Of a stretch of DNA of 48,876 nt, positions 40,874 through 48,585 are shown one piece after another. The DNA lies in assembly GCF_001040845.1 (NCBI RefSeq), contig NZ_CP011941.1:1-48876 (forward strand), read 5' to 3'. Within the stretch, counting starts at the first letter, position 1, and each line of letters begins with the position of its first letter. The position numbers and the translations under genes were made by a program. The notes below the pieces were generated by a model. It was not told the DNA's origin. It saw only the letters and a program-made list of their open reading frames with translations, and did no database searches. This DNA is from Synechococcus sp. WH 8020. GTDB taxonomy: Bacteria > Cyanobacteriota > Cyanobacteriia > PCC-6307 > Cyanobiaceae.

Positions 40874-41404
40874 CTAGAAGCCGAAATTGCCGCTGAATCC
40901 TGATCCTGATGAAAATGCTGCTGAGTTAGATGTAGTGCTAAAGTCTTCAATCGTCTCAACAAAAGTCTCCTCCACTGTCTTTTGATGCATATTGATATTT
41001 TGTTCGTTAATGGTCATTGTTGCTGTCATTGCAAAACCATCTTCAGTGATTATTTCGCTATTTGTCATTCCAGCAAGTTCGCCTTCTTTGGTGATACCTA
41101 ACTTCAGTTTTTCCTTTGACGTAGTGTCTCCTGGACGCAGTTGTTCAAGATTTTGAATCATCAATTCGGTGACTGGGCCATCAATCCCTTCGTCTGACAT
41201 CGTAAAAGTCACTACTTGACTATCCATTTGGCCATCCATCTCCATTATCCTGCCTTCCTTGTTAGTTATATGCTCTCTGCCATTAGATACTCTGTTTTGT
41301 CCTGACATATTGTTTCTGCTAAGCATCCTCATCTGAGCAACGGACGAAAGAGGTGATGCAAAAATAATCACAAGACTGAGAAAAGCTAGATTGAAATGCT
41401 TCAT
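40874..41404 (-). CDS. Secreted protein B1 (left cassette), unknown function
   Basis: A 176-residue exported protein. The signal peptide (MKHFNLAFLSLVIIFASPLS, then SVA before QM) is clear. The mature part is acidic, Met- and Thr-rich, without cysteine, with TNKEGRIMEMDGQMDSQVVT, TELMIQNLEQL and TATMTINEQNINMHQ. The C-terminus is Ser/Gly/Phe rich and ends in GFSGNFGF. It is a clear but diverged paralogue of B2 (43999-44535): both have PLSS(V/L)AQM, GRE, a TMS/TMSxxG core and TATMTI/TATMTM. It lies 42 bp downstream of RHH-c1. No known family recognised; a surface or matrix protein is a guess. Confidence 0.8.
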   Translation of the reverse strand: MKHFNLAFLSLVIIFASPLSSVAQMRMLSRNNMSGQNRVSNGREHITNKEGRIMEMDGQMDSQVVTFTMSDEGIDGPVTELMIQNLEQLRPGDTTSKEKLKLGITKEGELAGMTNSEIITEDGFAMTATMTINEQNINMHQKTVEETFVETIEDFSTTSNSAAFSSGSGFSGNFGF

Positions 41405-41446
41405 TGTTCGGTGACGAGTGGATTTCTTTGTGCAAAATTTTGGTCG

Positions 41447-41623
41447 CTAGTATTGATCTTGTGGTTCTTGTTTTTCCACCTCTTTCAAAATAATGCTGAC
41501 AATGTAGTCTTTCATGCTCTGGTCAGCATTAAGAGCATGAACCTTGATGCTTTTGTGAACATCTTTTGAAACTAGGATTGATAGTCTCTTTAGGTTGCTA
41601 GGAGTGTCATTAATTTGATCCAT
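41447..41623 (-). CDS. Ribbon-helix-helix protein c1 (left cassette)
   Basis: A small DNA-binding protein of CopG/Arc type. From ATG 41623 it is 58 residues: a basic beta-strand LKRLSILVSKDVHKSIKVHA followed by two helices (LNADQSMKDYIVSIILKEVE). This start aligns residue by residue with RHH-c2 at 44755; an ATG 14 codons upstream (41665) overlaps the A1 stop and lacks a counterpart. It lies between secreted genes A1 and B1. RHH proteins usually dimerise and repress their own operon, so autoregulation is likely, but no target is proven. Confidence 0.8.
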   Translation of the reverse strand: MDQINDTPSNLKRLSILVSKDVHKSIKVHALNADQSMKDYIVSIILKEVEKQEPQDQY

Positions 41624-41657
41624 TGATTTGGTAAAAGGAAAGGGGAAAATTTTAAGC

Positions 41658-42281
41658 TTAGTCATTAGTTAGTATGCTGCTGAGGCTGGAATTTGATGTG
41701 CTCCCAATGTTCCACATTGTTTTGCAGTGATTGTAAAGACCAGGCAGTGTTGATTTCAGGCTTGTGAGTGCAATTTCTCCTTTTGTGGCAATGACTTTGG
41801 CCTCAACGCACTTCTTGAGAATTCCAGATTCTGTAGTCATCATTGTTTGCTTGGCTTGATTTTTCATTGCCGAAATACAACTGGAGACTTGTGGTCCGAA
41901 AGGCATCTGGAAGCCAATCGTTCCCTGTGGCATCCAGTCTTTATCTCGAGTGTTATCCCCGAAAGTGCCAAAATATTGATTGTCGTATGGCAGTACTCCT
42001 ATGTTTGCAAAGAAGCTAGGTGATTGGCAGCTAATGGCTCTTGAACCAACGGTCATTTCACCAAGTTCACCTTGTGCTGGGTTGATTTGGTAGTTGTAGA
42101 TTCCTCCACCAATCGACTCAGACCGTGATTGGTTTTGTTGGGAGTTAGTTGGCATCGCGACCGCACTATTTCCATTCTCCTGTGTTGTTTGTGCATAACT
42201 GGATACCGCTGTAGCTGAGGAAAGGATTAAAAATCCTGCTAATGTTGCGAACCGATTCATGGATGATGAAGTTGTTTTCAT
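41658..42281 (-). CDS. Secreted protein A1 (left cassette), unknown function
   Basis: A 207-residue exported protein. The signal peptide (FATLAGFLILSSATAVSSYA, cleaved before QTTQ) is followed by a mature part with four cysteines (ISCQS, SSCIS, KKCVEA, NHCKTM), a Gly/Tyr-rich middle (IGGGIYNYQINPAQGELGEM, NQYFGTFGDNTRDKDW), and a C-terminal helical region rich in Lys and Thr. ATG 42281 matches the A2 start; a longer upstream frame has no counterpart. The core is almost identical to A2 (44828-45451): about two residue changes in the ~160-residue core against many in the last 19. Two disulfides are plausible. No family is recognised. Confidence 0.82.
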   Translation of the reverse strand: MKTTSSSMNRFATLAGFLILSSATAVSSYAQTTQENGNSAVAMPTNSQQNQSRSESIGGGIYNYQINPAQGELGEMTVGSRAISCQSPSFFANIGVLPYDNQYFGTFGDNTRDKDWMPQGTIGFQMPFGPQVSSCISAMKNQAKQTMMTTESGILKKCVEAKVIATKGEIALTSLKSTLPGLYNHCKTMWNIGSTSNSSLSSILTND

Positions 42282-42325
42282 GTCTTTAGTATGTCTATGC
42301 CAGTTGTACTGAATGAACACTTTTA

Positions 42326-42347
42326 CAGTGATGCGTCATTGCACATT
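42326..42347. promoter_or_regulatory. Conserved 22-bp motif upstream of A1
   Basis: The plus-strand sequence CAGTGATGCGTCATTGCACA continuing with TT recurs upstream of A2 with one base change, at 45 nt from the start codon in both units, although the DNA between motif and gene has diverged. It is a candidate operator or promoter element for the A genes; the minus strand offers TGACGC-type half sites. No -10 box is convincing. Confidence 0.6.
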
Positions 42348-42370
42348 TCTTCTTTATCCAGCTATAGGCC

Positions 42371-42432
42371 TTTTTGAATAAACAAGGAAGGGCCACTACT
42401 CTGATAGTGCCCCTTCCTTGTTTATTCAAAAA
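42371..42432. repeat. Long palindrome with 28-nt arms (left cassette)
   Basis: Arms 42371-42398 and 42405-42432 pair with one mismatch around a 6-nt loop (CTCTGA). The outer ends are T-rich and A-rich, so both strands can act as terminators: T-runs follow the stem in each direction. It lies between the A1 5' region and pseudogene RHH-b1. The right cassette has an unrelated palindrome with arms of the same length at the same place. It may end RHH-a/b transcripts before the A promoter. Confidence 0.85.
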
Positions 42433-42455
42433 ATAAAGGATTGTTTCTATTTGGC

Positions 42456-42635
42456 CTAGGGCGCTTGGATTGTATGATTTGGATGCAAGATGTAAGTTTC
42501 GATTAAACTGGTGTCAATTTAGGTGATACTTCTGCCTTCCTCTTTGTGGGCTTGCAGTTTGAGGCTTTTGTGTATTGAATGAATCAGCAATACTGATAGC
42601 TTTTTTGGATTTGTGGTTGTGTGCTGGCTGTTCAT
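42456..42635 (-). pseudogene. RHH protein b1, inactivated by an in-frame stop
   Basis: The frame opens MNSQHTTTNPKKLSVLLIHS, continues with IHKSLKLQAHKEEGRSIT and meets TAA at codon 39; after it the same frame goes on IDTSLIETYILHPNHTIQAP to a TAG. It aligns along its whole length with the intact RHH-b2 (45616-45798): MNSQL, KKLSVLL, HKSLKL, KSIT, LIEKYILHP. So the gene was functional and lost one codon by mutation. A truncated 38-residue product would lack the second helix. It was not found by length filters of 60 residues. Confidence 0.75.
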
Positions 42636-42696
42636 GTATCCTGAGCTTAGACAAGTAGGGTTGAACTAAGATTAGGTTGCCATCTTTAATGAGTTG

Positions 42697-42912
42697 TTAA
42701 TTGAACGGATATTGGCTTAATGCACGAAAATCTTTTGAGCAGACCTTGTTGGCTAAATGTATTTGATGCTCGGTTTCAAGAAAGTCGTGCAAAGCATTAA
42801 TCACTAGTGATACCATTGTTTCTTCCCTTTCATGAGCCAGTTGCTTGATTTTTTCGTGGAGACCACGGGAAACCTCAAGGGAGACTCTTTTCTTTGTTTT
42901 GACGTTTGTCAT
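42697..42912 (-). CDS. Ribbon-helix-helix protein a1 (left cassette)
   Basis: From ATG 42912, 71 residues: TKKRVSLEVSRGLHEKIKQL then AHEREETMVSLVINALHDFL, a standard RHH (basic strand, helix, turn, helix), followed by a variable tail ending CSKDFRALSQYPFN. It aligns with RHH-a2 (46068) almost completely over the RHH part. An ATG nine codons upstream at 42939 has no counterpart in the paralogue. It is upstream of pseudogene b1, and these two were probably one transcript. DNA-binding repressor role inferred from the fold only. Confidence 0.82.
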   Translation of the reverse strand: MTNVKTKKRVSLEVSRGLHEKIKQLAHEREETMVSLVINALHDFLETEHQIHLANKVCSKDFRALSQYPFN

Positions 42913-43924
42913 GCTTTGCGTGAACAAGTTGGTAATCATGAGATTTTCTTGAGATTATGTGATTCTTTCCAATCACCGATTGTCAGAATCCACAATGCCA
43001 TCGCACTCAGTTGGGTGTTGCTGCTTTCCTGATCGTCGTTAAGCTTTCATGAACCTCTCACTCACCATAAATGCACTTTTAAGCCAGAAAGCAACAATGC
43101 GTTTTCGGGACAAAATAACTGTTGATTGCAATCTGCGTTTTGAGAACAATAAACTGCGTAATCCTGACGGTTTCCGCGGTTGGTGAGTGAGTTTCTTTTT
43201 TTTTCCCATATAAGCAAAATCACTTGCAGGTCATTCCTTCTTAAGAATATCTTTGCTCAAGACGTTATTTTTTTTTGGCTAAGATCATGGCTTACTGGCT
43301 TAATTGCGCAAAACCATCATTTCTTTTTCTAGGACCTTCGTATTGGCCTTTAACGTTTAGGTAAGCGCATGTCTTTTTTCATTTTTTGGGAAATGGAACT
43401 CTTCTTTAAGCTGATTACTAGGCGCAAGATTTTTTAATTTAGTTGTGTAAGTATTTATCTGGAGCCTTTAAGTGAATCGTCAAAAATCTCCCTTTTGACT
43501 CAACTTTTATATTGGGAATAAATCTTTATGGCTTTACGCAAGATGAATTCTGGATCCGGATCAATCTCTTCAACGCAAGTGACCAAGAGGACTAGAACTC
43601 CTCAACAGTGAGGATTACTTCTGGATCTACTGCAGGTGACCAAAGCTCGACTGGTAGCCCATGTAGGCTTTTCATTTGTTAAAGAGGCCCTATGTCCTGT
43701 TTTTAAGATCTCGGCGTTGAGCTGACAATTGCATTGATTCATCTTTTGCTGGGTGTTGTTTGTTGATAAGCATAGTTATATCTTTATGAATTGAATAGAT
43801 AATTATGAATGGAAGTTTTGCCAAGTTTTGGAGCCTGAATATTCCGATTTAGTTTTTAGCTAACTGAGTTTGGGATTGTGGTGGGCCAGATGGATCAAGT
43901 CATTGGTCTCTTGTCTTGAGCCAT
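42913..43924. other. Intergenic region with a conserved upstream block
   Basis: About 1 kb without a supported gene. A 35-bp block at 43048-43082 (TCATGAACCTCTCACTCACC, then ATAAATGCACTTTTA) matches 26 of 35 bases of a block at 46208-46242, which sits at nearly the same distance (136 and 140 bp) upstream of the homologous RHH-a gene; it probably contains their promoter. The rest is AT-rich with no family-supported ORF, apart from a weak 27-codon plus-strand frame at 43528. Confidence 0.55.
43528..43611 (+). other. Weak 27-codon ORF, possibly the start of a lost gene
   Basis: A plus-strand ATG frame encodes MALRKMNSGSGSISSTQVTK and RTRTPQQ before a TGA, in a region where all recognised genes are on the other strand. 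A similar Ser/Gly-rich text (SGSTAGDQSSTGSP) follows in another frame, as if a Ser/Gly-rich gene had been frameshifted. No family is recognised, and chance is a realistic alternative. Confidence 0.25.
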
Positions 43925-43960
43925 AAAAAAGAGGATGCACTGAAAAACTCCAGCGCATCC
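43925..43960 (-). terminator. Rho-independent terminator of B2 (minus strand)
   Basis: A ten-base stem GGATGCACTG/CAGCGCATCC (43933-43942 with 43951-43960, one A-C mismatch) has an 8-nt loop and on the minus strand is followed by six T. It lies 39 bp beyond the B2 stop codon, so the right cassette ends here. Confidence 0.8.
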
Positions 43961-43998
43961 ACTTTTGGGTGATTTTATTGTTATAAAGTGTTCATTCT

Positions 43999-44535
43999 TT
44001 ACATGTCGAAGGCGCTAACAAACCCTGTTTCTGTACTCCATGCCTCTGTTTTTGTTGTCGTTTCATAGTCTTCAACTCTTTCGATGTTTGTTTCTTCGTT
44101 TTCATCCGTCCACATGTCTGCCATGCTCTCACTCATCGTCATTGTTGCTGTTATGGTGAATTTCTCGTCAGCATCTAGTTCACTATTTAAAATTCCATCG
44201 AGCATGTTCTCTTCCGATACACCCATCGATAGTTGCTCCATTACCGCCATGTCCTCCGATCTCATTTGCTCCATGCTTTGCAGCATTAATTCACTTGTGG
44301 CTCCTTCCATTCCTTGTCCAGACATTGTCATAGACATTGTCTGATTGCCCATCACTCCTTCCATCTGTGAAGATCTACTGATTCTTTGATTCACTATTTC
44401 TCTTCCTTTTGAAGTTCGAATTATTTCGCTATCACTACCACTTGAGATTGAAGTTGTTTTCATTTGGGCTAAAGATGAAAGTGGAGTCGCTAGAACAAGA
44501 AGGACGCCGAAGGGAAGAAGCTTGGAGAAATACAT
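43999..44535 (-). CDS. Secreted protein B2 (right cassette), unknown function
   Basis: A 178-residue exported protein with signal peptide MYFSKLLPFGVLLVLATPLS, then SLA before QM. The mature part is unusually rich in Met, Ser, Thr and Glu (MSMTMSGQGMEGATSELMLQ, SMEQMRSEDMAVMEQLSMGV), with no cysteine, and ends with AWSTETGFVSAFDM. It is the paralogue of B1: the order of motifs (SRSSQMEGVM, MTMS, SELM, TATMTMS, VEDYETTTKTEAW) is shared, but overall identity is low. It follows RHH-c2 by 49 bp and is ended by a strong terminator. Met-rich, disulfide-free secreted proteins may be metal-binding or structural; unproven. Confidence 0.8.
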   Translation of the reverse strand: MYFSKLLPFGVLLVLATPLSSLAQMKTTSISSGSDSEIIRTSKGREIVNQRISRSSQMEGVMGNQTMSMTMSGQGMEGATSELMLQSMEQMRSEDMAVMEQLSMGVSEENMLDGILNSELDADEKFTITATMTMSESMADMWTDENEETNIERVEDYETTTKTEAWSTETGFVSAFDM

Positions 44536-44584
44536 AATGATTGGTGAAATTAAATTAGAGTGGCTAGACGTTTTTAGAATAGAG

Positions 44585-44755
44585 TTATTCCTTTAACGCT
44601 TGCTTGTTTACATGTTTCATGATGAGATTAATGATGTAGTCTTTCATGCTTTGGTCAGAATTTAAGGCATTCATTTTAATGCTCCTATGGATTTCTTTTG
44701 TGACAAGAATGGAAATCCTCTTCTGATCTTGTGGATTCTCGTAGTATGTGTTCAT
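44585..44755 (-). CDS. Ribbon-helix-helix protein c2 (right cassette, 56 aa)
   Basis: A short gene missed by 60-residue cutoffs: MNTYYENPQDQKRISILVTK, EIHRSIKMNALNSDQSMKDY, IINLIMKHVNKQALKE. It aligns with RHH-c1 from the first residue (KR(L/I)SILV(S/T)K, H(K/R)SIK, ALN(A/S)DQSMKDYI). It has the RHH form of a basic strand and two helices. It lies between A2 and B2, as c1 does between A1 and B1. The lengths match the smallest Arc/CopG proteins. Confidence 0.8.
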   Translation of the reverse strand: MNTYYENPQDQKRISILVTKEIHRSIKMNALNSDQSMKDYIINLIMKHVNKQALKE

Positions 44756-44827
44756 GACTTGCCTGTCGGATTAGGTGTGTGTCAATGTTTTGAAAATTGA
44801 CTGGGTTTGTTCTGAAAACTAAAATAT

Positions 44828-45451
44828 TTAATTGCTATTTGTTGTGCCCCCAATATTTGACTGTGAGGTGGTTCCAACATTCCACATTGTTTTGCAGTGA
44901 TTGTAAAGACCAGGCAGTGTTGATTTCAGGCTTGTGAGTGCAATTTCCCCTTTTGTTGCAATGACTTTGGCCTCAACGCATTTCTTGAGAATCCCAGACT
45001 CTGTAGTCATCATTGTTTGTTTAGCTTGATTTTTCATTGCCGAAATACAACTGGCGACTTGTGGTCCGAAAGGCATCTGGAAGCCAATCGTTCCCTGTGG
45101 CATCCAGTCTTTATCTCGAGTGTTATCCCCGAAAGTGCCAAAATACTGATTGTCGTATGGCAGTACTCCTACGTTTGCAAAGAAGCTAGGTGATTGGCAG
45201 CTAATGGCTCTTGAACCGACGGTCATTTCACCAAGTTCACCTTGTGCTGGGTTGATTTGGTAGTTGTAGATTCCTCCACCAATCGACTCAGACCGTGATT
45301 GGTTTTGTTGGGAATTAGTTGGCATCGCGACTGCACTATTACCATTCTCCTGTGTTGTTTGTGCATAACCGGATACCGCTGTAGCTGAGGAAAGGATAAA
45401 AAATCCTACTAATGTTGCTAAACGATTCATGGCTGATGGCGTTAATTCCAT
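44828..45451 (-). CDS. Secreted protein A2 (right cassette), unknown function
   Basis: A 207-residue exported protein of the same length as A1. Signal peptide: LATLVGFFILSSATAVSGYA before QTTQ. Mature part as in A1 with four cysteines and the Gly/Tyr-rich middle. Within about 520 bp of coding DNA (45400-44881 against 42230-41711) I see only about 15-20 base differences, most of them silent, while the last 19 residues (for A2 MWNVGTTSQSNIGGTTNSN) and the flanks have diverged. This pattern indicates gene conversion or very recent duplication of the core. Function unknown. Confidence 0.82.
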   Translation of the reverse strand: MELTPSAMNRLATLVGFFILSSATAVSGYAQTTQENGNSAVAMPTNSQQNQSRSESIGGGIYNYQINPAQGELGEMTVGSRAISCQSPSFFANVGVLPYDNQYFGTFGDNTRDKDWMPQGTIGFQMPFGPQVASCISAMKNQAKQTMMTTESGILKKCVEAKVIATKGEIALTSLKSTLPGLYNHCKTMWNVGTTSQSNIGGTTNSN

Positions 45452-45495
45452 GCTTTTAGTGTGTCTGATCCTGACATACTTGACGTACTCTTTCG

Positions 45496-45517
45496 CAGTG
45501 ATGCGTCAATGCACATT
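45496..45517. promoter_or_regulatory. Conserved 22-bp motif upstream of A2
   Basis: The plus-strand sequence CAGTGATGCGTCAATGCACA continuing with TT differs at one base from the motif before A1 (42326-42347) and has the same 45-nt distance from the start codon. On the minus strand a TTGACG could be a -35 box here but the other copy has ATGACG, so operator is the safer call. Confidence 0.6.
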
Positions 45518-45540
45518 GGTGCATATACTTCTGTCGAACA

Positions 45541-45599
45541 TAATTATTTAGCAATAAAAAAGCACCGCTTGGCGGTGCTTTTTTATTGCTAAATAATTA
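45541..45599. repeat. Perfect long palindrome with 28-nt arms (right cassette)
   Basis: Arms 45541-45568 and 45572-45599 are perfect reverse complements around a 3-nt loop (TTG), with inner GCACCGC/GCGGTGC and flanks rich in T and A, so each strand carries a T-run after the GC stem. It works as a bidirectional terminator in form, but is longer than needed. It stands between the A2 5' region and RHH-b2, the same place as the palindrome of the left cassette, whose sequence differs. Confidence 0.88.
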
Positions 45600-45615
45600 A
45601 TGTACTTGAAATTCT

Positions 45616-45798
45616 CTAGCGCTGTCCTTGATGGTTTAAAAGATCAGGATGTAGTATATATTTTTCGATTAAGACCGTCACAATTTCTGTGATGCTCTTG
45701 TCTTCGCTGAGTGCCTTTAGTTTCAGGCTTTTATGGGTTGTATTTGATAGTAATACAGAAAGCTTCTTTTGTTCTGTGGTGTTGAGTTGGCTGTTCAT
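45616..45798 (-). CDS. Ribbon-helix-helix protein b2 (right cassette)
   Basis: A 60-residue protein: MNSQLNTTEQKKLSVLLSNT, THKSLKLKALSEDKSITEIV, TVLIEKYILHPDLLNHQGQR. The strand-helix-helix order and the basic strand identify an RHH protein, though diverged from the a and c types. The left cassette has an inactivated copy (42456-42635). It lies 34 bp downstream of the RHH-a2 stop, so a2 and b2 form one transcript, ended by the palindrome at 45541-45599. Confidence 0.78.
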   Translation of the reverse strand: MNSQLNTTEQKKLSVLLSNTTHKSLKLKALSEDKSITEIVTVLIEKYILHPDLLNHQGQR

Positions 45799-45831
45799 TT
45801 GTTTTAAGTGTTTTTTGAATTTGTTTTAAAG

Positions 45832-46068
45832 TTAAGCAATAGTTATAGAGTGTGAGTTGAATTTATATGTATTCAATTGGGGGTTTGTCTCGTATGAAGA
45901 TTCACTGTCGAATCTAATGTCGTGCTCACTTTCAAGGAACTCATGCAAAGCACTAATCACAAGTGAGACCATCGTCTCCTCTCTCTCGTTGGCAAGCTTT
46001 TTGATCTTGTCATGAAGTCCACGAGAAACCTCAAGAGATACTCTTTTTTTTGCTTTGCAGTTGTTCAT
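45832..46068 (-). CDS. Ribbon-helix-helix protein a2 (right cassette)
   Basis: A 78-residue protein from ATG 46068: CKAKKRVSLEVSRGLHDKIK, KLANEREETMVSLVISALHE, FLESEHDIRF, then a variable tail. It is nearly identical to RHH-a1 through the RHH domain (KKRVSLEVSRGLH, EREETMVSLVI, ALH(E/D)FLE(S/T)EH). An in-frame ATG three codons upstream (46077) is possible. It heads the right cassette, with the conserved block 46208-46242 about 140 bp upstream. Confidence 0.82.
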   Translation of the reverse strand: MNNCKAKKRVSLEVSRGLHDKIKKLANEREETMVSLVISALHEFLESEHDIRFDSESSYETNPQLNTYKFNSHSITIA

Positions 46069-46695
46069 GTTTTGCAAAAGAAATGATCGTGATTTCGAGT
46101 ATTGATTTGTGTTTGGTGGATTTTCTCCAACCTTTGATTGGATGATTTCTCAGGTGTCCTTTGCATGCCTTTTTTAAGGCGGTGCTTTGGTTGCATTCAT
46201 ACTGATCTCATGGACTACTCATTTACCATATAGACACATTTAGCTTTTAAAAGCGCTTTGCGCTTTGCGGACAAGATGCTTTTTGGTTGTCTCTTTGCGT
46301 CTCGAGCACAAAGGCCTGCGCTTCTTGGACAACTGCCCCATGAGAAGAGGGAGCTGCTTTTGTAGAACCTTATAACCGGTGAGTGATCTAGGTACTAGCC
46401 TCTTAATATTTAATTTATTTTTTTTGTTAGCTTATTTTGCCTCTTAAGCGTTCTGAGATGGCTCAAAAGCGCATTTCTAAGTCAGGATTTATTGTCTCGT
46501 GGATCGTGGGATGGTCAAGGGCATAGTATTCTGTGGTTTATATTTCGTGATAATTGTGGCTGGGATCTTTTTGACTGATTTTTACTGGTTTTAAGTTGCT
46601 TTGGCAGATTTTATCGCATTTTATACTCTTGAATTTTCCGATGCTGCCAAATAGATTTTTATTGCATGGCTACAGTATTTTTTCGAATCTCAAGG
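46069..46695. other. Intergenic region with conserved upstream block
   Basis: About 620 bp with no supported ORF. It contains the 35-bp block 46208-46242 (TCATGGACTACTCATTTACC, then ATATAGACACATTTA) homologous to that upstream of RHH-a1. The minus-strand reading contains TATATGGTAAAT, a possible -10-like box. The left cassette repeats this layout, so the duplication included upstream DNA. Confidence 0.5.
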
Positions 46696-47106
46696 TCAAG
46701 ACAAACGTTTTCTCAAAGCTTCTGCCTTGAGATTCATTTGTTCGTCATTCCTTAGGAATTGTTTAAGTGCTTCAATTACAATTGAGTTTAATGTGTCATC
46801 TTGCTCAAGGGCTAGGATTTTAAGAGTTTTATGCATGTCACTACTTATTTCCAATGAGAGACTTTTCGTGTATTGGCTTTTTTTTCTTTTTTCCATTGTT
46901 TTTTCTTCTGGGATAGGAGCTCCTGATACTTTTTCATCAACAACGAATTGGCTCCTCTTTATTTCTTCTTTTTGTCTGTGCTCAGAAAATACTTCTTCTT
47001 GTTCGGTTTGATTAAAGGGAATCTCAGGTTTCGTTCTTGGGTTTTCCACGCTGAGTACTCTCACATCTCGTTCACGATGCCATGAAGTCTCCAGTCTTGC
47101 AACCAT
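46696..47106 (-). CDS. RHH protein with N-terminal extension (136 aa)
   Basis: A 136-residue protein with about 75 residues of low-complexity charged N-terminal sequence (rich in Glu, Arg and Lys), then a C-terminal RHH: KRKKSQYTKSLSLEISSDMH, KTLKILALEQDDTLNSIVIE, ALKQFLRNDEQMNLKAEALR. It is the largest RHH protein of the cluster and has no copy in the left cassette. It sits upstream of the right cassette on the same strand with a gap of about 620 bp. I infer a DNA-binding regulator; the N-terminal extension may contact another protein. Confidence 0.7.
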   Translation of the reverse strand: MVARLETSWHRERDVRVLSVENPRTKPEIPFNQTEQEEVFSEHRQKEEIKRSQFVVDEKVSGAPIPEEKTMEKRKKSQYTKSLSLEISSDMHKTLKILALEQDDTLNSIVIEALKQFLRNDEQMNLKAEALRKRLS

Positions 47107-47784: not shown

Positions 47785-48585
47785 TTAGTTCCAGTCAGTG
47801 TTGGTGAAGGAGCTGCTTTCGAAGCCTCTGCTGGTTGACGTAGCTGAGGTGAAAGCATCTACAGAGGTGTGTGTATTGCCAGTTTCGGTGAGTGAACCGA
47901 CGTAGCCGTTGGTGTAGGTATCGATGGAACCTGAAGCAGCGCCATTGAGGAAGTACTCACTTCCTTTGCCATGCGAGAAGTCGATGTTCGAGTCATCGTA
48001 GCCACCGTTCAGATATCCATCTGCTTCCCCATAAGCGCCGTGGCCATGAAGTGAGGAACGCTCACCTCCAGCTGCAACTTCAAATTCGCCTTCACCTTCT
48101 CTGTCAACAGTGGTGACAGAAGGTGTGGGCTCTTGTCCTCCATAGCAGCCATACCACTTGCATGTGGGTTCTTTGCCAGGGTCTCCAGGCAAGTGTGTTG
48201 TGGTTGTAGTTACATCGCCTTCTGCTGCACCCTCGAGATATCCTTCGGCTGCGTGGCGGCCAACCCTTCCAATACCACCCTCTGCTTCTGCATCGATATT
48301 TGCTGCAGCATTTCCAGTGGTTTGATCATACTTGTAGTTACCATAGCGGTGACCCACGGTGGCATTTTCAGCAGAAAAATCGACGCTTACTCCGTTATTG
48401 ATTCCACCTACGTGCATATCAGCTGTTTTGTGAAAGCTGCTATCGACGGAGACATCTGTATAAGACGATGAGGTGCCGGTGACGCGCATGGCGCTGGAAC
48501 CTGTTTGGTTACCAATATTTCCGGCCATTGCGGCAGATGGAATTAGGAGACCAGCTGCACCGAGAAGACCAATTAGTTTTTTCAT
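47785..48585 (-). CDS. Large secreted Gly/Ser/Thr-rich protein
   Basis: A 266-residue exported protein with a clean signal peptide (MKKLIGLLGAAGLLIPSAAM, then A before GNI). The mature part is acidic, rich in Gly, Ser, Thr, Asp and Tyr, with short hydrophilic beta-prone runs (DVSVDSSFHKTADMHVGGIN, GHGAYGEADGYLNGGYDDSN). It has a Thr-rich stretch (DVTTTTTHLPGDPGKE) and two cysteines (PTCKWYGCYGG) which may pair. The C-terminus reads TSTSRGFESSSFTNTDWN, faintly like the C-termini of B1 and B2. Single-gene unit with its own terminator. No family is recognised; secreted adhesive or amyloid-like matrix protein is a guess. Confidence 0.78.
   Translation of the reverse strand: MKKLIGLLGAAGLLIPSAAMAGNIGNQTGSSAMRVTGTSSSYTDVSVDSSFHKTADMHVGGINNGVSVDFSAENATVGHRYGNYKYDQTTGNAAANIDAEAEGGIGRVGRHAAEGYLEGAAEGDVTTTTTHLPGDPGKEPTCKWYGCYGGQEPTPSVTTVDREGEGEFEVAAGGERSSLHGHGAYGEADGYLNGGYDDSNIDFSHGKGSEYFLNGAASGSIDTYTNGYVGSLTETGNTHTSVDAFTSATSTSRGFESSSFTNTDWN

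What the first reader, a model, noticed from the sequence alone, without database searches (positions are those of the whole stretch)
40874..47106. Tandem duplicated RHH / secreted-protein cassette
Two copies of the same gene order, RHH-a, RHH-b, long palindrome, 22-bp motif, secreted A, RHH-c, secreted B, lie head to tail on the minus strand, with a seventh longer RHH gene upstream. Each unit carries three different small DNA-binding proteins, an unusually high density for two structural genes. Secreted proteins A and B match no family I know. Candidate roles are a regulated surface, adhesion or contact system; RHH-antitoxin-like control is another possibility, but no toxin-like partner is visible.
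Basis: partly seen in the sequence, partly recalled or inferred. Interest (0 to 1): 0.85.

Follow-up and report, generated by a model that had tools for sequence, protein, structure and literature searches.

The report
Tandem secreted-protein operons with private regulators
A marine cyanobacterium carries two old head-to-tail copies of a small operon for two probably exported proteins of unknown family, run by their own little DNA-binding proteins; one of the two proteins is kept alike between the copies while the other has drifted far apart, which suggests a fixed assembly partner serving a changeable surface protein.

Summary
The cassette is real: two minus-strand units, a-b-hairpin-motif-A-c-B, plus an upstream longer RHH gene. 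Two corrections: gene b of unit 2 is broken by an in-frame stop, and the palindromes look like RNA hairpins rather than operators, since the hairpin is kept while stem or loop sequence changes.

The duplication is old: B1 and B2 share only 37% of residues. The A copies, however, are kept alike within each of two strains. In the A core, 20 informative sites group by strain and none by unit; at the ends, 25 group by unit and 1 by strain. That is concerted evolution of A beside diverged B.

A reaches no curated Pfam or NCBIfam cut-off. It recurs in other cyanobacteria, and 20 of 20 A genes read on both flanks lie next to a small, probably exported protein. Seven of 8 matches to a profile of these RHH proteins in the genome lie here. 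The RHH version was seen in 3 species and one stray contig.

Best reading (0.45): A is a periplasmic or outer-membrane partner, B its variable exported cargo or subunit, the RHH proteins a locus-specific repressor set. No toxin partner, usher or curli domain was found. Structure models were too weak to decide.

The parts
46696..47106 (-). upstream longer RHH gene (R7), 136 aa, RHH domain in the C-terminal half
   Evidence: ORF; PHROG Arc-like repressor E 9.7e-6; Pfam Antitox_RHH E 8e-5, below cut-off; orthologue in G001 82%
45832..46077 (-). RHH-a of unit 1 (ATG probably at 46068)
   Evidence: PHROG Arc-like repressor E 1e-6; orthologue in G001 81%
45616..45798 (-). RHH-b of unit 1
   Evidence: PHROG Arc-like repressor E 0.0019
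45541..45599 (-). 28-bp perfect inverted repeat, terminator-like hairpin between b and A1
   Evidence: -40.7 kcal/mol, z -11.9; hairpin kept in G001
45496..45515 (-). 20-bp core of the '22-bp motif' before A1, TGTGCATTGACGCATCACTG
   Evidence: 20 of 20 in the G001 upstream unit
44828..45451 (-). probably exported protein A1, 207 aa
   Evidence: signal-like N-terminus by inspection
44585..44755 (-). RHH-c of unit 1
   Evidence: PHROG Arc-like repressor E 0.0011; Pfam ParD E 1.6e-4, below cut-off
43999..44535 (-). probably exported protein B1, 178 aa, 12% Met after residue 24
43933..43960 (-). terminator-like site after B1
   Evidence: 13 such sites in the region against 8.9, sd 3.2, in shuffles
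42697..42939 (-). RHH-a of unit 2
   Evidence: D2; PHROG Arc-like repressor E 4e-8; 62% to a1
42474..42638 (-). RHH-b of unit 2, broken by an in-frame TAA
   Evidence: D3; 1 TAA
42371..42432 (-). 28-bp inverted repeat (96%), hairpin before A2; not listed as a terminator by the scan
   Evidence: -42.5 kcal/mol, z -9.7
42326..42345 (-). 20-bp core of the motif before A2
   Evidence: 17 of 20 in the G001 downstream unit
41658..42281 (-). probably exported protein A2, 207 aa from the ATG at 42281 (the listed ORF begins at a GTG at 42320)
41447..41623 (-). RHH-c of unit 2, start taken by homology to c1 (ORF opens at 41665)
   Evidence: PHROG Arc-like repressor E 0.0047
40874..41404 (-). probably exported protein B2, 176 aa
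   Evidence: 38% to B1, E 2e-32

Best explanation
Each A-c-B operon makes an exported two-protein system. SHOWN: A is the conserved, homogenised member; B and the ends of A diverge; RHH genes of this kind are almost confined to the locus. INFERRED: A is a Sec-exported periplasmic or outer-membrane partner that carries, assembles or anchors B. B is an exported surface or extracellular protein that is free to vary. RHH-c, made between A and B, feeds back on its own operon at the promoter block before A, and a, b and R7 set the level from a separate upstream transcript that ends at the hairpin. Two tandem operons let one cell make two different B proteins with nearly the same A.
For: A core: 20 informative sites group by strain and 0 by unit (nt 120-559), while the ends give 25 by unit and 1 by strain. 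A paralogues differ at 0 of 420 core sites in G001 and 12 of 420 in G000; both orthologue pairs differ at 28 of 420 (nt 120-539). B1/B2 are 37% identical in both strains, synonymous change too high to estimate. A lies next to a probably exported protein, directly or across c, in 20 of 20 A genes read on both flanks. RHH-profile matches at the locus: G000 7 of 8, G001 5 of 6, G021 4 of 4 (one weak), against 0, 1, 0 and 1 in four genomes without A. Order b-like, a/R7-like, A, c, B in G021 and A, c, B in L017. Promoter block kept before A in both strains. Arc-like repressor matches.
Against: Export rests on inspection of N-termini; no signal-peptide program was run. Neither AlphaFold model is reliable (A pLDDT 53, pTM 0.30; B pLDDT 56, pTM 0.24), and the long beta-hairpin predicted for B1 got no support from hydropathy alternation in B1 or B2. 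B-like neighbours in other genera could not be shown to be homologous to B, nor could the G019 neighbour by BLAST. Gene conversion may homogenise A simply because the copies recombine, without selection, and the claim rests on two strains. DNA binding is untested, and the 20-bp motif is at shuffle level before a, R7 and the G021 A genes. The terminator and promoter scans as a whole are near shuffle level.
Confidence: 0.45

Rival explanations
1. Exported antagonist (allelopathic) system: B is a variable effector and A its conserved carrier or protector, tightly repressed by RHH proteins.
For: Variable B beside constant A; in G018 and G019 the B-A pair lies a few kb from an ABC transporter with a C39-like N-terminus and an HlyD-like gene (by inspection).
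Against: No killing domain at any cut-off used; B has a Sec-like N-terminus rather than a double-glycine leader (inspection); no immunity-like gene seen; no such transporter noticed in the ORFs read at the G000, G001 or G021 loci (not searched by profile).
Confidence: 0.15
2. Stress- or metal-responsive envelope protein: Met-rich B binds copper or scavenges oxidants, and the RHH proteins sense it.
For: Mature Met content: B1 12.3%, B2 7.9%, L017 B 9.7%; copper shock raises genomic-island genes in CC9311 (stated in PMC3744912, passages read).
Against: The two G021 B proteins have 1.2-2.1% Met, so the feature is not general; nothing in print found for these genes.
Confidence: 0.1
3. RHH antitoxin-type addiction module with an unrecognised toxin.
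For: Weak ParD, HicB and CopG-antitoxin matches, all below curated cut-offs; HicB-like antitoxin PHROG matches E 0.002-0.005.
Against: Several RHH genes without a paired toxin; no toxin family (PADLOC: one chance-level SspC match, E 0.013, on B1); A and B look exported; A occurs beside exported proteins without nearby RHH genes in other genera.
Confidence: 0.05
4. Chaperone-usher pilus pair like CccS/CccP of Synechocystis.
For: Two probably exported cyanobacterial proteins in one operon, one variable and one constant.
Against: CccS carries Pfam SCPU and CccP PapD_N (PMC4390875, passages read); none of 16 A-family or 15 B-family and neighbouring proteins matched either at E 0.1; no usher gene in the own genome, with E. 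coli as a working control.
Confidence: 0.03

Closest known systems
CccS/CccP (slr1667/slr1668), Synechocystis chaperone-usher-type pair
   Same: Two small exported cyanobacterial proteins encoded side by side, one needed to export the other (PMC4390875, passages read)
   Different: Different protein families (PapD_N and SCPU absent, no usher in the genome); targets of the cAMP regulator SYCRP1 (PMC6755745, passages read), not of RHH proteins
EbfG/PteB biofilm matrix proteins of Synechococcus elongatus
   Same: Small exported cyanobacterial matrix proteins (PMC9981879: search listing and start of abstract seen; GG leader and C39 transporter recalled)
   Different: EbfG leave through a C39 transporter (recalled); A and B look Sec-exported
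RHH regulators of surface functions such as Pseudomonas AmrZ (recalled)
   Same: RHH protein controlling exported structures
   Different: Here several small RHH genes sit inside one locus, one of them between the two structural genes
Exported hypothetical proteins of 150-240 aa in marine Synechococcus exoproteomes (PMC4949707, passages read)
   Same: Size, export and, for some of them, strain specificity

Membership tests
Chaperone-usher pilus (CccSP type) | PapD_N chaperone and SCPU subunit domains | tested here: not met
   Pfam scan of 16 A-family and 15 B-family or neighbouring proteins, no such match at E 0.1
Chaperone-usher pilus (CccSP type) | usher gene in the genome | tested here: not met
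   PF00577 search of the own genome: no match at E 0.1; the E. coli control rings
Curli / curlin fibres | curlin repeats in the subunit, CsgG-like exporter | tested here: not met
   no curlin or CsgG Pfam match among the proteins; the rest of the genome was not searched
Type II toxin-antitoxin with RHH antitoxin | RHH (Arc-type) DNA-binding proteins | tested here: met
   PHROG Arc-like repressor matches for all six scanned proteins, E 4e-8 to 0.005; Pfam hits sub-threshold
Type II toxin-antitoxin with RHH antitoxin | adjacent toxin gene | tested here: not met
   partner genes look exported or are RHH genes; no toxin family in Pfam, NCBIfam, PADLOC or PHROGs
EbfG/PteB-type matrix proteins | double-glycine leader and C39 transporter (recalled) | tested here: inconclusive
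   inspection only: Sec-like N-termini; C39-like transporter noticed only near the G018/G019 pair
Known structural family of A | sequence or fold match in the PDB | tested here: inconclusive
   best profile match E 0.38; fold searches with a low-confidence model gave nothing usable

The most novel reading that the evidence does not exclude
A is the conserved core of an undescribed cyanobacterial export or assembly pathway, each A serving fast-evolving exported cargo beside it. In this clade it became a cassette system in which one cell carries several A-cargo operons under a private relay of RHH repressors, with A kept alike by gene conversion so that any A can serve any B, while B diversifies under grazer or phage pressure.
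Probability: 0.27. Interest if true: 0.8.

Novelty: new variant of a known kind. Interest (0 to 1): 0.55.

Why it matters
Exported proteins are the least understood and most strain-specific part of marine Synechococcus proteomes (PMC4949707, passages read). Here is a small locus in which a constant partner, a variable partner and dedicated regulators can be told apart from sequence. That makes a direct test possible: does A export or anchor B, and do the RHH proteins choose which B is made?

Tried and rejected
CccS/CccP hypothesis: dropped after reading that those proteins carry SCPU and PapD_N domains, which A and B lack, and because the genome has no usher.

Palindromes as RHH operators: not supported. 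In the unit-2 pair the stem sequences differ but the hairpin stays; in the unit-1 pair mainly the loop differs. I call them terminator-like; only the unit 1 hairpin is in the scan's list, so for unit 2 an attenuator or another role is open.

Shared operator: the 20-bp motif scored no better than shuffles in the 12 other regions tested: before a (3), R7 (2), c1, B1, B2, the 266-aa genes (2) and both G021 A genes.

Giant beta-hairpin for B: the model shows strands 26-73 and 128-175, and Foldseek lists phage tail and pore-toxin stems (best E 3.3e-4; VIA-align best Z 4.5). With mean pLDDT 56, pTM 0.24 and no hydropathy alternation in B1 or B2 (a few of the other stretches tested did alternate, such as the G588 N-part and the G200 B2 C-part) I give it no weight. 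A shared long hairpin is no evidence of a toxin.

The 266-aa protein at 47785-48585 as a B relative: not shown (hhalign 0.2%). B relatives beyond G000, G001, G021 and L017: not shown. The G018/G019 rows of A8 were placed by me, so the G018 hit is by construction. Weak single-member matches dropped as chance: PorP_SprF E 0.0049 in 1 of 16 A proteins, tail fibre PHROG E 0.03-0.05 for A, FMN_bind E 0.05, SspC E 0.013 for B1, G062 for B E 0.0098.

No match of A in phages, plasmids or viral contigs. Papers: searches found nothing on these genes; the locus-tag prefix search rests on a recalled strain identity and a guessed tag range, and its one hit, PMC3170327 (passages read), could not be tied to these genes.
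Full report
OBSERVATION. The two minus-strand units and the upstream RHH gene are as described, with direct repeats at 3.16-3.17 kb spacing. The shared motif occurs twice in the window against 0.03 expected. The block is AT-rich: 39.7% G+C against 48.9-60.1% in 70 overlapping windows of the same size in the first 40.8 kb. A similar AT-rich block is seen in G001 and G021, but not around the A genes of G018 and G019. Unit 2 is incomplete: its gene b is stopped in frame inside the RHH domain. In G001 the second unit has no a-b; only about 225 bp separate the first B from the second A.

THE RHH GENES. None reaches a curated Pfam cut-off, but all six scanned match Arc-like repressor PHROGs (E 4e-8 to 0.005). 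By sequence they form two groups, a with R7 and b with c (my reading). A profile of them finds 8 places in the own genome, 7 at this locus; 6 in G001, 5 at the locus; and 4 in G021, all at the locus, one weak. Genomes of the genus without A gave 0, 1, 0 and 1 hits (G002, G005, G022, G025). G018 gave 3 hits, one just upstream of its B-A pair, and G019 gave 1, far from its pair. Rows of the profile come from G000, G001, G021, L017 and G018, so hits on those rows are expected; the scarcity elsewhere is the result. RHH genes of other families would not be counted. In a separate six-frame scan of 22 sources, the 12 loci from other genera read on both flanks gave one hit, in G195 and about 7.5 kb from A; none lay within 3 kb of A or within the shorter flank held. 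G018 and G019 loci gave one further hit each about 7 kb from A.

HAIRPINS AND MOTIF. Each A gene of G000 and G001 follows a long hairpin of -38 to -42.5 kcal/mol, z -9.7 to -11.9. In the unit-2 pair the stem sequences differ while the hairpin is kept; in the unit-1 pair mainly the loop differs. This fits an RNA structure such as a terminator or attenuator better than a protein-binding palindrome. Terminator-like sites in the region number 13 against 8.9 (sd 3.2) in shuffles and promoter-like sites 13 against 13.9, so the scan alone proves little. The 20-bp motif core is exact before A1, A2 and the upstream G001 A, and 17 of 20 before the other G001 A. It is at shuffle level in the 12 other regions tested, including both G021 A genes.

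CONCERTED EVOLUTION OF A. B1 and B2 are 37% identical in both strains with synonymous change beyond estimation, so the duplication is older than the split of G000 and G001. Yet the A paralogues are 89% (G000) and 91% (G001) identical in protein. Along the four aligned 624-nt genes, 46 sites separate pairs. In nt 120-559, 20 group by strain and 0 by unit; in the ends, 25 group by unit and 1 by strain. In nt 120-539 the two A genes differ at 0 of 420 sites within G001 and 12 of 420 within G000, against 28 of 420 for either orthologue pair. So the core, but not the signal region or the tail, has been copied between units in each strain. I infer gene conversion; whether selection keeps the copies alike is not shown.

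DISTRIBUTION. A was found in 5 of 31 genomes of the genus; in 10 of 399 of the order sample, two of them weak; in 16 of 386 of the phylum sample at E 0.1, 6 of those weaker than E 0.001; and in 5 of 290 of a class sample. These samples overlap. A relative of A in the own genome lies about 12 kb beyond the cassette (59151-59765, outside the window), in a second group of probably exported proteins. The profile match is 97% probable over 106 columns, and a search with that protein found 13 of 201 family genomes, 10 of 59 genera. B by single sequence was found in 3 of 101 genomes, G000, G021 and, weakly, G062, and by reading in G001 and L017. L017 is a 3-kb contig filed under a Flavobacteriales bin, which I take to be misplaced.

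NEIGHBOURHOOD RULE. I read both flanks of 20 A genes in 17 genomes: two each in G000, G001 and G021, and one each in G018, G019, G062, G195, G034, G150, G139, G076, G073, G200, G491, G588, G717 and G481. All 20 have, next to A or separated only by c, a small protein with a signal-like N-terminus on the same strand. This is by eye, without a control set. Six further A-family places (the third in G000, G225, G227, G187, G111, G949) were seen only in part or lack a clear same-strand neighbour of this kind, and are not in the count. In several genera the order is B1-B2-A followed by a small Cys-containing protein; those of five loci align with 10 invariant columns. The neighbours in other genera are not demonstrably homologous to B: hhalign 0.9%, 0.4%, 8.5% and 0.5%.

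STRUCTURE. A models as a disordered N-part, a hairpin at 89-99/115-125 and helices from 130, with pLDDT 53 and pTM 0.30. No PDB sequence relative or usable fold match was found. B models as a very long hairpin with a loose middle, pLDDT 56 and pTM 0.24. I do not rest on either.

MECHANISM AND VERDICT. Constant A, variable B, RHH genes nearly confined to the locus and one RHH gene inside the operon point to an exported system with feedback control. Shown: gene order, recurrence, concerted evolution of A, divergence of B, the local RHH set, the broken b2. Inferred: export, A-B interaction, repression, surface role. Chaperone-usher membership fails on domains and usher, and an addiction module fails for want of a toxin. 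Interest 0.55: the pattern is unusual and testable, but function is open. Searches of the open-access library found no description; subscription papers and supplements were not covered.

Noticed in passing
G000:C1:56274-60925 (outside the window; L060): A second group of probably exported proteins, including a distant A relative at 59151-59765 and a Cys-containing protein at 59803-60252, about 9-14 kb beyond the cassette and beside a cysteine-synthase-like gene.
   Followed up: partly
window 47785-48585; L009 13673-14476 and 14837-15640: A 266-aa Gly/Thr/Ser-rich, probably exported protein just upstream of the cassette; G001 has two tandem copies 97% identical to each other and 76-78% to this one. 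No relation to B could be shown.
   Followed up: partly
L012 and L011, about 8.1-15 kb: Around the G018 and G019 B-A pair: a convergent sigma-70-like gene, an HlyD-like gene and an ABC transporter with a C39-like N-terminus (by inspection).
   Followed up: no
L076 39-2031 (G187): An A-family gene split by a transposase-like ORF (by inspection).
   Followed up: no
L054 8263-8718, L055 5503-5979, L056 8227-8715: In three large-genome cyanobacteria the A and exported-protein genes are followed by a similar small protein; two of the three were scanned and match DUF3862 weakly (E 0.004 and 0.07).
   Followed up: partly
G021:C1:699587-699661: A short RHH-like fragment (E 0.0175) beside the intact RHH genes, perhaps the remnant of another copy.
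   Followed up: no
L017 (JAAESS010000311.1): A 3-kb contig with A-c-B filed under a Flavobacteriales MAG, probably a binning error.
   Followed up: no
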